From: a virus
DNA: 32,677 bases
Reading direction: 5' to 3' (one strand)
IMG/VR virus record: IMGVR_UViG_3300025319_000071
Coordinates: 1-32,677 of that record
A program made the position numbers and the translations under genes. The notes beneath the pieces were generated by a model. It had not been told where the DNA came from. It saw only the letters and a list, made by a program, of their open reading frames with translations, and did no database searches. Shown one piece after another: positions 27,027 through 32,473 of this stretch. Each line of letters begins with the position of its first letter. Positions within the stretch are counted from its first letter, which is position 1.

Positions 27027-28016
27027 TTTTTTCTTTTCTCCTTTGGTTTCAAAATTATCATCAACTTGATAGGCATCAAAGCGGTATTCGTTAGAATCCA
27101 GATGCACTTTGCAATCTCTTCCAGCTCGTCCTTTGTCAACAAGAGCAAGGTGGTTATATCGAATATTTCTTTGAATGGCATCATAGTGTTTACCATCACG
27201 TGTCACTCCAGAAGTCCATTCCAGATCACATTTGTAGCCACAAGATACCTCTGTCATCTTTTTGCTTTCCATATACTCAATGGCTTCTGAATCTGTAACC
27301 ATCACGGAAGTAGTGACATAGTTATCTTGTTTTCCCACGTCCGAACTAACAAAACCTCGTTGATATTTACGAGTATTTTTAGGGGTTAACATGGTGGGGG
27401 GATGCCCTAATGTAAATGGTTTTTTGGCTAATGTTTTCATGGAATTATCGTCATAGACTTCAGAAGGAGGACGCCATTCTCGTCTAGGTTTCCCTGTCTT
27501 TGAATCGACATAAACAAAGACATCGGAACGAGTCGCAAATACAGGTACTTCCAAATACCCCTCATCCGTTCGTTTCGTTCCATCCATCCTGACCCTACAC
27601 TCACTGATACGAGTTTGAGAGTCCATTTTACGTGATGAGTTAAGTTTCTTTTTGACAGAAGAACTCGCATATTCAAGAACACCACTGGACTCACTTGGGG
27701 TAATTCCATCTTGTAATTCAGCCTCTACAATGCGATCAGCAACAATCGTTCTTCCTTTTGGGTCATCAGAATAGCGAGTAGTAGCGAATTGTGAAAACCT
27801 GACAGCAGCATTACGAAGCCTTTCAAGAGGGGTTAATGGGAAAGCGAGATTGACAGGGTCAGCATAATCTTCTTCATCCTGTGGGAAATCAGCAGGGGGG
27901 GTTAGACGTGCATCTTCTTGGGCTTTAATGCCCCACTTCTTGGCACGTTTGGCTTGAGCTTCCCGCTTTTCGTCACTGGCAGCATCTTTATCGGGTAGTT
28001 GATCGAATCGTGGCAT
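26436..28016 (-). CDS. DUF2213 prohead protease-like protein with scaffold tail
   Basis: A 526-residue protein. ATG 28016 has AGGAG six bases upstream. Residues about 140-320 form the DUF2213 domain: GYLEVPVFATRSDVFVYVDS, KTLAKKPFTLGHPPTMLTP, MTEVSCGYKCDLEWTSGVTR, AIQRNIRYNHLALVDKGRAG. The last resembles the U35-type prohead protease end (H-x-A-L-V-...-G-R). Residues about 345-400 are a coiled coil (LEKVKQDKDDLEALKTKVSE, LQGKFDTKEQEAKQLKEKND). The order protease then scaffold in one chain is common. The first 130 residues are charged and Ala/Pro-rich. An internal start at 27026 could make the scaffold alone. Confidence 0.8.
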   Translation of the reverse strand: MPRFDQLPDKDAASDEKREAQAKRAKKWGIKAQEDARLTPPADFPQDEEDYADPVNLAFPLTPLERLRNAAVRFSQFATTRYSDDPKGRTIVADRIVEAELQDGITPSESSGVLEYASSSVKKKLNSSRKMDSQTRISECRVRMDGTKRTDEGYLEVPVFATRSDVFVYVDSKTGKPRREWRPPSEVYDDNSMKTLAKKPFTLGHPPTMLTPKNTRKYQRGFVSSDVGKQDNYVTTSVMVTDSEAIEYMESKKMTEVSCGYKCDLEWTSGVTRDGKHYDAIQRNIRYNHLALVDKGRAGRDCKVHLDSNEYRFDAYQVDDNFETKGEKKKMPIEINGRRFDVDEAVEVAYSVHLEKVKQDKDDLEALKTKVSELQGKFDTKEQEAKQLKEKNDSVNVGALVKERLALEKTASRFVKDSVDGLTDRQVKEVVLKSVYPEMKFDDKEDAYINAGYELVASGAKASDPGKKRTDSYDRALKSLGGKPSDKNDSITNARMDMIQTMGNAWQKTAHYGKAPVMITKEGDKE

Positions 28017-28058
28017 AGGGTTCTCCTATGACCAATGGTAAGGGGAAAAGAGGAGGGC

Positions 28059-28304
28059 TTATTTTGAGACAGGGTGTTTTACTTTTTTGTCTTCAGATCT
28101 TTGAAGAGCTTTTTTAATAGTTTCTTCAGCTCTATTTGAATGAAATGAAACTTTATCAGCTAATCTCTTTAAATATTCATCTTGTTGCTCAGAGGTCATT
28201 TTATCAAACTCTTGCTTCTTTTTTGCCATACTTTCTTCATATCCTTTTAAACGAACGGCTGTACTATCAAATAGAAGCATTTCACCATTGAGACCTGTTG
28301 CCAT
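28059..28304 (-). CDS. Small protein after the toxin-like domain
   Basis: An 81-residue protein. ATG 28304 overlaps the previous stop as TAATG, with GGAG seven bases upstream. It is polar and helical: DSTAVRLKGYEESMAKKKQE, then FDKMTSEQQDEYLKRLADKV, then ETIKKALQRSEDKKVKH. No family is recognised. Its place directly after the toxin-like domain and the coupled start make an immunity or chaperone role possible; a small head-assembly protein is an equal alternative. Confidence 0.5.
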   Translation of the reverse strand: MATGLNGEMLLFDSTAVRLKGYEESMAKKKQEFDKMTSEQQDEYLKRLADKVSFHSNRAEETIKKALQRSEDKKVKHPVSK

Positions 28305-28909
28305 TACTTTACTCCTTTAATACGCTCTACAGTATATTTTACATTAAATTTTGCAGATAATTCAACATTTATACGGTGCATTACCTCAAATAAAACCAAA
28401 CCTTTATCCAGTTTACCTGTGCTTACTTCAAAATCAATCACACCATCATGTTTTATTTGTAAGTCACTAAACAGAGATCTTAAATCATCTGAAGGAATCC
28501 TAGCCCATCCGTTAGAAGGTCTTTGAATTTTATATCGGTAGTATTTCCCATCTCTTTCACCTATAGCAATCAATTCAGCTACATTTTTGTCCATTGCTTC
28601 AACCCAATCTTCATCGGAAAAGCTCTTGCCAAAAACATGATTATGTCCGAGTGAGACATCCCCACGCTGACGGAAGATATTGGCATAGTTCTTAGGAATA
28701 GTGACCACATAAGTATTTTTCTCTTTTGAGAACTTACCAAGAATGTTAGGCATAACTATCTTTCCATCTTTATCCCATGCCGTTGCCATTTCGTTTTCTA
28801 ACGAAGTTCCTTTTACCCGTTTTGTAAACTTTACCAATCCTTGCTCAAACGAATTTAAGTCTTTAAAATCAACAGTTTCGACCTTATATTTCGGGTTTCC
28901 AATGGTTTC
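28304..28909 (-). CDS. Toxin-like domain in frame with MuF, separated by one stop codon
   Basis: After the MuF stop TAA (28912-28910) the same frame stays open for 201 codons to 28304. The first possible start is TTG 28837, with AGGA touching it and no proper ribosome spacing. The domain (about 178 aa from 28837) carries GHNHVFGKSFSDEDW (H65, H67, S74, D77 from that start), preceded by ENEMATAWDKDGKIVMP and followed by AELIAIGERDGKYYRY. This is the HNH-type, JAMM-resembling motif (HxH then FS..D) that I know as a C-terminal domain fused to MuF head proteins in other phages. It may be made by read-through or reinitiation, or may be silenced by a nonsense mutation. The lack of its own ribosome site favours dependence on MuF translation. 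Confidence 0.6.
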   Translation of the reverse strand, partial: ETIGNPKYKVETVDFKDLNSFEQGLVKFTKRVKGTSLENEMATAWDKDGKIVMPNILGKFSKEKNTYVVTIPKNYANIFRQRGDVSLGHNHVFGKSFSDEDWVEAMDKNVAELIAIGERDGKYYRYKIQRPSNGWARIPSDDLRSLFSDLQIKHDGVIDFEVSTGKLDKGLVLFEVMHRINVELSAKFNVKYTVERIKGVK

Positions 28910-29794
28910 TTATCGAACATTTAGAAAGAGTCTTTTCCCATCTTCTCCAAAGCCTACCCCAAGCGGTTCTCTTAGTTCAGATAATCCAGTAGATTCCACT
29001 TCTTGAGAAGGGACATTCGATTCTGATTCATCATCAAAGTAAGGCAAAGCGACGCACCTGCATTGAATAGGTTGACCGGGATGACCATCAGAAGGGGGCT
29101 TATCCCAAGAGAAGATTTTCTTGTTACGTTTTCTATGCTGGGGTCTCACTCGTTCATCTTGAGCGGTTTGCCAGATGTACTTATCAATACCTGCTTCCAG
29201 ATGTTGTATCTGAGTCAGATTACCATGAAACTTACCCACTTGATCTCTAGCAATGAGCTTGGCTTTATTCTCTCCAAATCCAAATTCTGTTTTGAGATGC
29301 TCTTTGATTGTTTTGATAGATTGCCCTTGTCTAATAGAGTCGTTAACCAGTGTGGTTAAACGATCTGCAACCTGATTCCCAAAATTCTTGATCAGTCTTA
29401 CATTCTCACTGACAAAATCATTTATCGACTGGGACACTTTGGGGTTATTGATAAACGGATTGACTTCCAGTTCTTTTTTGTTAACAGATTCCATTTGCCT
29501 ATTGAAATTCCGTGTTGTGAAATCTTTAACAAATACCGCAATAGACCTTACTTTAGAGCTAAAGCCATCCACTAATTGACCCCATTTCTGCTTAGTAGAT
29601 TCAAAAATCGAATCGATTTGAGAATCATCAAAGCGTGGATAAATAAGGATTTCGAGATCCTTTACCATTTCAGAAAACCATGACTTATACAGTTTTAAAA
29701 GTTGACTGCGGTAATCTCTCTCCACTCCGAGAGGGTACTTCGTAAGTGGCATCTTCTTCTGTCTCGGTGGCTTTCTCTTTGCTAAAGTCGGCAT
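28910..29794 (-). CDS. MuF / SPP1 gp7-like minor head protein
   Basis: ATG 29794 has GGAGG upstream; starts at 29815 and 29752 are also possible. All of them overlap the portal C-terminus, by 69 to 131 bases. The product is about 294 aa. The N-terminal two thirds are helical (LYKSWFSEMVKDLEILIYPR, then FFRQMES-like FNRQMESVNKKELEVNPFIN). The MuF domain ends the protein: KTIKEHLKTEFGFGENKAKL, WQTAQDERVRPQHRKRNKKI, HPGQPIQCRCVALPYFDDE. The CRC motif and DERVR..H are hallmarks. The protein sits at the portal and is injected or used in head assembly. The frame continues past the TAA into the toxin-like domain. Confidence 0.85.
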   Translation of the reverse strand: MPTLAKRKPPRQKKMPLTKYPLGVERDYRSQLLKLYKSWFSEMVKDLEILIYPRFDDSQIDSIFESTKQKWGQLVDGFSSKVRSIAVFVKDFTTRNFNRQMESVNKKELEVNPFINNPKVSQSINDFVSENVRLIKNFGNQVADRLTTLVNDSIRQGQSIKTIKEHLKTEFGFGENKAKLIARDQVGKFHGNLTQIQHLEAGIDKYIWQTAQDERVRPQHRKRNKKIFSWDKPPSDGHPGQPIQCRCVALPYFDDESESNVPSQEVESTGLSELREPLGVGFGEDGKRLFLNVR

Positions 29795-31070
29795 CTGTTG
29801 GGATCTCCTCCCCATCTATGTTGTAAGTTCCTCTGGATGATAATTCTTTTCTGATTTCCTCAACACCTAACACACCATATTCTAGATAGCCCTTGTCAGT
29901 TTCCATATCCAGCTTATTGATTTCAGCTTGTTCTTTGCGTGTCGGTTGCCAGAGAGAATGGAACTCAAAATAAATGGGTTCTTTGAGATCAAGTTCAGCT
30001 TGAAGATAAGAAAAAAACAGTTCCAGTTCTGGGCGTAAAAGATTTTCTTGTGCTGATTTAACTTTGTCGTACCAATCTCTTGATTGACTCCCTCCAGACT
30101 CTCCGAGACTCGAACCGGGTGATTCGTTAAATAGCTTTGTATGGGGAGTATCTGACGTTGCAACGAGATGATCTTTAGAGAGTTTAACCAGTTCTGGCAT
30201 CCCTGAAACCGTTGTTGATTTACGTTCATACGAATCTTCAGCATCTATTACAATAGCGTTGAAATTGCTACGCCCTGCATCAATACATTCTATTTTTGCT
30301 TTTATGGCTTCTTCCGCTTCTTCCTTGTTACTTGCAATAGCTGCGTTAAAGCCCAAAAACTTATACACCGTTTGGGCAATATCTTGAATTAAATGACTGA
30401 CATTGCGTAAATTTGACCCATAGGCTCTCAGAGGCTCATAGTTCCGTTCCATGATTGAAGATGACCAACCCCGATTTTCACACCGATCCTCTTCTGTAGT
30501 TGTTGTTCCCTCAAAAATGAGGAGGCGTGAACGATGTATTTTAGCGTATTTATCTCTGGAGAGTTCGTAGAATTCAGGTCTGCGAAACCTGCCGTAATCA
30601 CTTGGATAAATCCATTGTGCATCGATAGCAGTAGCTTCATTGATTCTCATAATACGATCTAAGGCAACGGGTTGATCAAGAGTCTGTCCATCATCTATGT
30701 CGAGGAGTATAACAGCACCACCAAAGAGTCTCGCCCATTTCATCGCTTGATTACACAAGGGCAAAATGTGCAGCTCGTTGAGCCGCTTGTCGATAATACC
30801 GTCTGGATCATTGGTAATTTTGAGGGGTTCACGGGTCATATCGTTTGGCAAAAGATCGATGATTTTAGAACAGATACCGTCTGTCCGGTATAAATTTCGT
30901 AGCTCTTGATAGGTGAGTTGGGGACGGTAGGAGAAGAAGGTGCGAGCCAATTTATCTTTAAACGTACCGAGTCCTGTGAATAAGTTCGTCCATCCGTCTA
31001 ATCGCCGACTTGATTTGACTTTAGCTGCTTGATAATCAATTGATTTGTTTGTTTTAAATGGCCAGATCAT
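29685..31070 (-). CDS. Portal protein (DUF1073 type)
   Basis: ATG 31070 overlaps the terminase stop as ATGA. The 461-residue protein has the DUF1073 landmarks: YQELRNLYRTDGICSKIIDL, CNQAMKWARLFGGAVILLDI (then DDGQ), ARINEATAIDAQWIYPSDYG-like INEATAIDAQWIYPSDYGRF, SRLLIFEGTTTTEEDR, SSIMERNYEPLRAYGSN, and TPHTKLFNESPGSSLGESGG. The C-terminal clip and barrel follow, ending in an acidic tail. Twelve copies form the DNA entry ring. The last 100 bases overlap the MuF gene in another frame. Confidence 0.9.
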   Translation of the reverse strand: MIWPFKTNKSIDYQAAKVKSSRRLDGWTNLFTGLGTFKDKLARTFFSYRPQLTYQELRNLYRTDGICSKIIDLLPNDMTREPLKITNDPDGIIDKRLNELHILPLCNQAMKWARLFGGAVILLDIDDGQTLDQPVALDRIMRINEATAIDAQWIYPSDYGRFRRPEFYELSRDKYAKIHRSRLLIFEGTTTTEEDRCENRGWSSSIMERNYEPLRAYGSNLRNVSHLIQDIAQTVYKFLGFNAAIASNKEEAEEAIKAKIECIDAGRSNFNAIVIDAEDSYERKSTTVSGMPELVKLSKDHLVATSDTPHTKLFNESPGSSLGESGGSQSRDWYDKVKSAQENLLRPELELFFSYLQAELDLKEPIYFEFHSLWQPTRKEQAEINKLDMETDKGYLEYGVLGVEEIRKELSSRGTYNIDGEEIPTDADFSKEKATETEEDATYEVPSRSGERLPQSTFKTV

Positions 31071-32473
31071 TTTTTCTTCACCCAATTTAATAATGGATTA
31101 TTTTTGACCCCGCTTAATTCGTTGAAAGCTCCACTGGCTGCATCCACTTGATCATCATGAGAGCCATTGGGGAAATCTTCCAGTTCCGATATAAAGTCAT
31201 CATTCCAATCACCCTCAAGCATATCCACATTCCCAATTTCTGCTTGGCTTGATAAGGGTATAGCTCTCGTTTCTTTGTTTTCATCAGAGCGAATCATTTT
31301 TACGTCAAAGCCGGCGAGGAATCGTATGAGATCTTCTGCCTCTGTTTTACCGCTGGCACCCGGTTCTTGTTCTCCACGTAACTTGTATTTACTCCCAAAA
31401 AGAGAATAATCTTGAGCAGCTACCTGCTTTATCATTTGCCTGATTGCCCCAGACTTTTTACGGTCTTTTTTGCGATCCAGAATAATGAAACGTCCATTGG
31501 CTCTTTTTCCCATAAGGACACCTGCTGTCCAGTCTGGATCAGGATTCGATTGACTCGGTTCCGTAGCCGCTCTATCCCAGTAGCGAACTACAGCGATTAA
31601 ATCAGTGGGAATCGATTTAACAATGGGAAAATAGTAGTCTCTGAAGTATTCCCCTTTTTCCTGATCAACATTCCAATTACCCTTAAGCAAACGTTCCTTT
31701 TCACTTACCGTTTGGGCGTCCAAATTACCTTCATAGCCGGGGTCAACTTGCATGAGTATTTGATTATCTTCCAGACGAGCGGGAATGAACGTGAGTGATT
31801 TGATGTGTTCTGGTTTCTTGTATGCGTATTTATGCAGCAGTTCCTCTTTAGAATCACCCCAAATAAGTTCACCTGATTCTCTGAAAAAGTGCCTCAACAC
31901 ACCTGATTTACTGTAATCAGGGTAAACCCCATCTGCATCGAGCCACCAACGAATGAGCTTTTTAACCCAGCTCTTTTTACTCGGGTTTGTTGCTGCCGTA
32001 ATATAGGGCTGTAGACCACAAACAGAACGATTACAGGACACAAGCCCCCAAAATTGCTTTTCCGTAAACTGAATCAGTTCATCAAAAGCGATAACTGCGT
32101 ATTCTGCACCGTCATGTAGTTCGACATCGTTCTCATGCTGCAATCCATCGAATTTTATCTTAGCTCCAGATGCCCATTGATAGTGCAACTCAGTAAGATT
32201 TTCGATGCCGGCGAAGAGTGGGTAAATTTGTCGAGCCTTATCCCAAAGTCCACCAGGGTTTTTGAGTTGTTTGCGAGTGCGACGAAAAAGAACAGAGTAG
32301 AATAAGGGATTATTGCGATACCGTAGCAAGTCAAGTAGCATCCCATATGATTTTCCACCTCCTTTTTGTCCACCGTAGATTTTTATATCAGCATTGCAGG
32401 CTAAAAAATCCCATTGTGGTCCTGGTTGCGGTCGAATTATTTTAACTGTACTAAAGGATTCCCCCACGAGCAT
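31067..32473 (-). CDS. Terminase large subunit
   Basis: I prefer ATG 32473; a TTG at 32491 is possible, and no good ribosome site exists for either. The protein is 468 aa. The ATPase domain has Walker A GGQKGGGKS (residues 34-42) and Walker B YAVIAFDEL with catalytic DE at 131-132, plus coupling motif TAATNP. The nuclease domain begins VVRYWDRAATEP (D300) and ends DFPNGSHDDQVDAASGAFNE with the final acidic pair. It cuts concatemeric DNA and drives it into the prohead. It overlaps the small terminase by 23 bases and the portal by 4. Confidence 0.9.
   Translation of the reverse strand: MLVGESFSTVKIIRPQPGPQWDFLACNADIKIYGGQKGGGKSYGMLLDLLRYRNNPLFYSVLFRRTRKQLKNPGGLWDKARQIYPLFAGIENLTELHYQWASGAKIKFDGLQHENDVELHDGAEYAVIAFDELIQFTEKQFWGLVSCNRSVCGLQPYITAATNPSKKSWVKKLIRWWLDADGVYPDYSKSGVLRHFFRESGELIWGDSKEELLHKYAYKKPEHIKSLTFIPARLEDNQILMQVDPGYEGNLDAQTVSEKERLLKGNWNVDQEKGEYFRDYYFPIVKSIPTDLIAVVRYWDRAATEPSQSNPDPDWTAGVLMGKRANGRFIILDRKKDRKKSGAIRQMIKQVAAQDYSLFGSKYKLRGEQEPGASGKTEAEDLIRFLAGFDVKMIRSDENKETRAIPLSSQAEIGNVDMLEGDWNDDFISELEDFPNGSHDDQVDAASGAFNELSGVKNNPLLNWVKKK

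What the first reader, a model, noticed from the sequence alone, without database searches (positions are those of the whole stretch)
28304..29794. MuF head protein and a toxin-like domain in one frame, separated by a single UAA
The MuF-like minor head protein ends at TAA 28912-28910. The very same reading frame then stays open for about 200 codons and encodes a domain with GHNHVFGKSFSDED, the HxH...S..D pattern that other phages fuse directly to MuF proteins. The downstream part has no proper ribosome site. This suggests either read-through or reinitiation giving two forms of the injected head protein, or a recent nonsense mutation that disarms a virion-carried effector. A small coupled gene at 28059-28304 could be its partner.
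Basis: partly seen in the sequence, partly recalled or inferred. Interest (0 to 1): 0.8.

Follow-up and report, generated by a model that had tools for sequence, protein, structure and literature searches.

The report
Phage head-protein effector, twice disconnected
A phage head protein that in related phages carries a RadC/JAB-like enzyme domain, probably injected into the bacterium with the DNA, has been cut off from that domain in both known variants of this phage, by a stop codon in one and a lost base in the other.

Summary
MuF (28910-29815, minus strand) ends at TAA 28912-28910; the frame then stays open for 201 codons, encoding a domain under purifying selection with no good start or ribosome site. 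Relatives show what it is: in a Sericytochromatia MAG, a Dorea phage, a gut phage and many IMG/VR contigs the domain shares one open frame with MuF or another head protein (of 80 contigs, 30 match Pfam MuF and 14 Phage_min_cap2). The family keeps E, HxH, S and D; a confident AlphaFold model and profile comparison place it nearest RadC-type JAB domains. A small coupled gene follows it more often than short MuFs (33 of 51 against 5 of 53), as described for MuF toxins. The stop: L002 shares the TAA; L003 and L004 have a Glu codon there, but a one-base deletion 38 codons earlier splits the gene anyway. Codons between the lesions changed almost only synonymously. So the ancestor was probably fused, and two alleles were disconnected independently and recently. 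Programmed read-through or reinitiation is not supported. Injection, activity and immunity are inferred. The domain is an unnamed, widespread addition to the MuF effector repertoire: a new variant of a known kind.

The parts
29685..31085 (-). portal protein, directly upstream; listed TTG start is doubtful
   Evidence: ORF; matches portals of L021 and L019 at 32%
28910..29815 (-). MuF-like minor head protein, 301 aa
   Evidence: PF04233 E 1.1e-20; PHROG 324
28910..28912 (-). in-frame TAA between MuF and the effector domain; same in L002, a Glu codon in L003/L004
28913..29023 (-). 37-codon linker between the two lesion sites, conserved in the fused frame (L003/L004 lack one base at 29025)
   Evidence: 9 syn / 2 nonsyn, omega 0.06, p 1.4e-4
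28304..28909 (-). RadC/JAB-like effector domain, 201 codons plus stop; E40 at 28792-28790, H89 at 28645-28643, H91 at 28639-28637, S98 at 28618-28616, D101 at 28609-28607
   Evidence: family alignment, independent profile, AlphaFold pLDDT 93.6, fold and profile comparison
28059..28304 (-). small coupled gene, 81 aa (76 aa in L003/L004); candidate immunity or partner protein, untested
   Evidence: TAATG overlap and SD -8.2; omega 0.27; similar layout in relatives

Best explanation
The ancestor of this phage made one head protein of about 500 residues: a MuF domain for mounting near the portal and a C-terminal RadC/JAB-like hydrolase domain, followed by a small coupled partner gene. By analogy with MuF toxins the domain would ride in the virion and enter the cell with the DNA. 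In the window lineage a nonsense mutation now ends the protein after MuF; in a sister allele a one-base deletion does the same a little earlier. Each leaves a short MuF of normal length and an effector that is unexpressed or barely expressed: recent, independent disarming. Shown: fusion in relatives, two different lesions, selection in the fused frame, conserved catalytic set, fold. Inferred: injection, hydrolase activity, toxicity, the role of the small gene, and that losing the effector was favoured.
For: Two alleles, two different lesions. Linker and domain evolve as coding sequence in the fused frame, and not in the other two frames (p). L021 (same gene order, terminase 40%) has MuF and the domain in one 689-aa frame; Dorea phage DO134P1 and gut phage MT837107 too. 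Of 80 IMG/VR relatives 30 match PF04233 and 14 PF06152 in the same ORF. Short MuFs are common elsewhere: most of the 61 MuF ORFs end within 20 aa of the last CxC, so a MuF cut there should still work. No good SD for the domain. A second lineage, L121, has frame changes in its MuF-domain gene.
Against: Only two alleles are known and both come from metagenome contigs. Both are broken, which could also mean that the split state is useful. The domain has kept its catalytic residues in both alleles, so no decay is yet visible. Injection and activity are untested.
Confidence: 0.72

Rival explanations
1. Programmed recoding: low-level read-through of the TAA (and frameshifting in the other allele) makes a few fused copies per virion, tuning the effector dose.
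For: The domain keeps its catalytic residues and shows omega 0.22; both alleles are split, so the split might be useful.
Against: Two unrelated lesions would need two mechanisms. I saw no slippery heptamer by eye at the L003 lesion. The stretch after the TAA folds to only about -11 kcal/mol over 80 bases, without a shuffle control. The relatives listed under Best explanation are simply fused.
Confidence: 0.08
2. Separate gene: the domain is translated on its own by reinitiation or coupling and acts as a stand-alone protein.
For: Solo versions of the domain exist (Aphanizomenon phage CL131 gp44, Hymenobacter plasmid; 21 of 80 IMG/VR ORFs are under 400 aa, some cut by contig ends or, as in L121, by frame changes).
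Against: No start with an SD; the first ATG loses E40; the linker upstream of the TAA is conserved as part of the same frame. In L003/L004 the first listed start is a GTG.
Confidence: 0.12
3. Sequencing or assembly error: the stop and the deletion are not real and the phage makes the fused protein.
For: Metagenome contigs only; strain mixtures are visible here.
Against: The TAA is in two contigs that differ at 5 other bases (window, L002), the deletion in two contigs from differently numbered datasets (L003, L004). Independence of the assemblies was not tested.
Confidence: 0.06

Closest known systems
MuF polymorphic toxins (Jamet et al. 2017, PMC5576092; section 7 and passages read)
   Same: MuF N-terminus encoded next to the portal, variable C-terminal enzyme domain, small gene just downstream (89.4% of toxin MuFs against 25.5% of short MuFs in that paper).
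   Different: JAB and RadC are not mentioned in the main text; here the gene is split by a lesion in both known alleles.
Bxa, a MuF-ADP-ribosyltransferase of a Bacteroides prophage (PMC11699363; passages read)
   Same: MuF fused to an enzyme domain, neutralised by adjacent small ORFs; shown to be antibacterial.
   Different: Different enzyme domain; intact gene.
RadC-type JAB domains, incl. those of polyvalent proteins (PMC5512222; passages read)
   Same: Profile match 95% with E, HNHP, S and D aligned; Foldseek's best five PDB rows are chains of one RadC entry.
   Different: No Pfam RadC hit; [quoted passage not shown] here it sits on phage head proteins.
Tox-JAB-1/2 of polymorphic toxins (PMC3482391, section 26 read)
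   Same: JAB-fold domain as a C-terminal toxin, proposed to be a nuclease.
   Different: Described with RHS and other systems in that section, not with MuF; no direct sequence comparison made here.
Cap3 / JAMM isopeptidases
   Same: Fold: Cap3 9ild Z 6.4, PfJAMM1 Z 6.4, Rpn11 and AMSH 5.7-5.8.
   Different: Z under 8, 8-11% identity; cytidine and DNA deaminases score nearly as high (5.6).

Membership tests
MuF polymorphic toxins | MuF domain encoded next to the portal gene | tested here: met
   PF04233 E 1.1e-20; portal directly upstream
MuF polymorphic toxins | C-terminal effector domain in the same polypeptide | tested here: not met
   Split by TAA in the window and L002 and by a deletion in L003/L004; met in relatives L021, L082, L086. 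The present gene is therefore a disconnected descendant, not a working member as it stands
MuF polymorphic toxins | small downstream ORF, candidate immunity gene | tested here: met
   28059-28304, TAATG overlap; 33 of 51 relatives against 5 of 53 short MuFs; function untested
MuF polymorphic toxins | toxicity neutralised by the partner | not testable with these tools
   needs expression tests
JAB/JAMM superfamily, RadC-like | E, HxH, S-x-x-D residues (motif recalled) | tested here: met
   E40, H89, H91, D101 invariant and S98 at least 90% in 71 sequences; window has Val for the usual Pro after HxH
JAB/JAMM superfamily, RadC-like | JAB fold | tested here: inconclusive
   Model pLDDT 93.6; RadC best in Foldseek but E 4.4e-3 and none at 0.001 or better; JAMM enzymes fill the top of VIA-align at Z 5.7-6.4, under 8, with deaminases at 5.6; hhalign to RadC 95%. 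The lines agree but each structural score is modest
Pfam RadC (PF04002) / Prok-JAB (PF14464) | score over the curated cut-off | tested here: not met
   neither family listed at E 5 for the window domain, L021 and L019 or L082 and L083
Ct_MAD of Jamet et al. | match to the Ct_MAD profile | not tested
   profile is in a supplementary file that was not available

The most novel reading that the evidence does not exclude
The MuF-borne JAB domain is an injected hydrolase that undoes ubiquitin-like conjugation in host anti-phage defence (the job that Cap3-type JAMM enzymes do for CD-NTases), so that phages carry a ready-made counter-defence in the head; this population has lost it twice because it pays only against hosts with such a defence.
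Probability: 0.1. Interest if true: 0.85.

Novelty: new variant of a known kind. Interest (0 to 1): 0.55.

Why it matters
It reveals an unnamed, widespread RadC/JAB-like domain (128 confirmed relatives in one IMG/VR scan) attached to phage head proteins and often followed by a small coupled gene, and a natural case in which one phage population has disconnected it in two ways. That makes testable whether such injected domains cost a phage more than they bring, and whether RadC-type JAB domains, whose activity is disputed, are nucleases or peptidases.

Tried and rejected
Chance open frame: rejected by homology, shuffles and selection. A recoded TAA: not pursued, since the domain itself ends in TAA. 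Pfam, PHROG, NCBIfam and PADLOC gave no convincing family for the window domain (best PHROG E 0.24); the gut-phage copy hits phrog_12001, unknown function, E 9.8e-8. The hits of the two-row profile to designed PPR proteins add up many copies of a 27-residue repeat outside the HxH core. The first AlphaFold job, with two sequences, failed (pLDDT 37). Viral scans with close sequences found only L002-L004 plus two chance hits, L009 and L010. A genome-contig scan with the domain found no relative. The A5 profile rang only in the two genomes whose sequences are in it: 2 of 292 in the phylum of G001 and 2 of 18 in its class; 0 of 299 in the phylum of G005 (the tool warns that this shows nothing). L019 was first seen by motif only: neither the two-row profile nor tblastn reached its tail; the 67-row profile does (E 3e-8). 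PADLOC gave JukA at E 0.021 for the small gene, taken as chance. Paper searches listed no description of a MuF-RadC/JAB fusion in the open-access library; subscription papers were not searched. PMC10449767 was seen only in a search listing.

Limits of the small-gene count: 80 contigs, 59 with an ORF of 400 aa or more, plus L019, L021 and L086 make 62; 53 after removing identical ends; 51 with 200 bases downstream. Not all are proven MuF fusions. The 51 split into 33 small, 6 large, 12 none; the 53 controls into 5, 19, 29. Of the 61 MuF loci I set aside L019, L021, L025, L040, L045, L077 and L079, and one more fell to the same filters. Three MuFs with other tails (L025, L040, L045) all had a small ORF. 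Only ATG starts counted; a looser count of 81 rows, solo ORFs included, gave 61. The groups differ in host taxa, so p 3e-9 overstates independence. In one search only 4 of 8 RadC and 6 of 8 Prok-JAB loci passed my extraction. The 67 rows were trimmed with a profile that included the window.

Full report
What is there. On the minus strand the order is terminase, portal, MuF, TAA, open frame, small gene, then a protein of 526 aa and the capsid genes. The record is a 32,677-base virus contig. MuF ends at 28912-28910 and the frame stays open to 28304.

The nearest relatives. The scan of IMG/VR gave three close contigs. L002 is identical over this stretch and differs from the window at five bases in the terminase gene. 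L003 and L004 are identical to each other over 3,371 shared bases. They differ from the window by about 2.5 to 28% per 200 bases in a block from about 31,057 to 27,790, while the flanks are identical or nearly so. In L003/L004 the codon at the TAA is Glu, but one base is missing at window position 29025, so MuF ends right after its domain (PYFDDE) and the effector lies in another frame. Both known alleles are split, by different lesions.

Selection. In the fused frame the 37 codons between the lesion sites show 9 synonymous and 2 nonsynonymous changes; the domain shows 43.2 and 42.8 (omega 0.22; MuF 0.21); codons 76-130, which hold HxH, S and D, show 10 and 2. In the other two frames omega for linker plus domain is 0.86 and 1.36 (p values). 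This is what a long-fused protein that was broken recently would show. With two alleles I cannot test for relaxation after the lesions. Codons 26-75 are much more diverged (dS 1.45), as if that piece had been exchanged with a third allele; this is inference.

The family. A scan for MuF in genomes gave 61 loci. L021, in a Candidatus Sericytochromatia MAG, has MuF and the domain in one 689-aa frame; the two-row profile of the domain hits it at E 4.4e-7, and its terminase (40%), portal, head and capsid genes match the window in order. L019, another Sericytochromatia MAG with terminase 53%, has a more diverged HxH...S..D tail. A weak phage hit (E 6) proved real: in MT837107 the domain is fused to MuF. 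From there came Dorea phage DO134P1 (fused, behind terminase and the next gene), Aphanizomenon phage CL131 (solo gp44), a Hymenobacter plasmid (solo, next gene after a Fic-family protein) and, in IMG/VR, 128 relatives of which the best 80 were kept. All 80 match the family profile. By Pfam, 30 of the 80 ORFs match PF04233, 14 PF06152, 2 PF06381, 1 PF05136 and 1 PF04860 (the last three are portal families; overlap between the lists was not shown). A profile of 67 of these domains, without the window type, scores the window at E 2.3e-12, L003 5.6e-11, L021 1.6e-12 and L019 3e-8 at a database size of 1e6; the best of 1,000 shuffles has 69. Across 71 domains E40, G49, H89, H91 and D101 are invariant, and E22, G58, T88, N90, P92, F97, S98, E112 and R114 are at least 90% conserved; the window and L003 have Gly, Val and Ile at 88, 92 and 114.

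Fold. With the 71-row alignment AlphaFold2 gives pLDDT 93.6 and pTM 0.89. HxH sits at the end of a strand (86-91) and S-x-x-D at the start of a helix (99-107). Foldseek's five best PDB rows are chains of one RadC entry (E 4.4e-3 and weaker; none at 0.001). VIA-align's top rows are Cap3, PfJAMM1, proteasome lid/Rpn11, BRCC36 and AMSH, all with Z under 8, with deaminases close behind. Among predicted viral structures the best named match is a 'Minor capsid protein' (E 6.3e-9, probability 1.00). Profile comparison with RadC gives 95% (E 4e-8), with Prok-JAB 2.9%, and with MuF as a control 0.9%. I call it RadC/JAB-like; it passes no Pfam JAB cut-off.

Partner gene. A coupled ORF of 30-110 aa follows 33 of 51 long ORFs bearing the domain, against 5 of 53 MuFs without a tail, in line with the 89.4% against 25.5% of Jamet et al. 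(PMC5576092, passages). By eye the small proteins fall into several unlike sets. Immunity is plausible but untested, and taxa differ between the two groups.

How it most likely works. The fused form would be mounted by MuF and enter with the DNA, as proposed for MuF toxins (PMC5576092; in PMC11699363 a MuF-ADP-ribosyltransferase is antibacterial and is neutralised by adjacent genes; passages). Whether the domain cuts nucleic acid, as proposed for RadC and toxin JAB domains (PMC3482391 section 26; PMC5512222), or removes ubiquitin-like tags, as Cap3-type enzymes do (recalled), is open. In the present phage both known alleles have lost the connection, while the terminase, portal and capsid ORFs are open over their length in the window. 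Of ten other proteins scanned, one is HTH repressor-like, one Erf-like and one a tail sheath. This fits a temperate contractile-tailed phage, but no integrase was found among the ten.

Verdict. The wider result is an unnamed RadC/JAB-type addition to the MuF effector repertoire. [quoted passage not shown] the paper searches named in Tried and rejected listed no report of the MuF fusion.

Noticed in passing
window 27,790-31,057 against L003/L004: Portal, MuF, effector and small gene form a diverged block between flanks that are identical or nearly so: a swapped cassette in one phage population, or strain-mixed assembly.
   Followed up: partly
L121:2324-4009: A second lineage with a broken MuF-domain gene: it aligns to the intact L097 protein in frames 2, 3 and 2, with one change between MuF and the domain and one inside the domain.
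   Followed up: partly
L101, L104, L108, L131, L135, L136, L141, L152, L155, downstream of the domain ORF: Recurrent small Cys-containing protein of about 62-88 aa (pattern like C..C...C.AFP.GIP) coupled behind the head-protein fusion; looks like one family of candidate partner proteins.
   Followed up: no
L007:2899-4374, L025:3557-5041, L040:3617-5041: MuF fused to what look by eye like ADP-ribosyltransferase domains, from a Manatee Spring phage, Avibacterium and Pelistega.
   Followed up: no
L083:3887-4456 (Hymenobacter plasmid NZ_CP040937): A solo copy of the domain lies next to a Fic-family gene, with a conjugative DNA transfer gene nearby.
   Followed up: no
window 28,685-28,834 (effector codons 26-75): A sub-stretch of the domain with dS 1.45 between alleles against 0.22-0.35 on either side, hinting at exchange with a third allele.
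   Followed up: no
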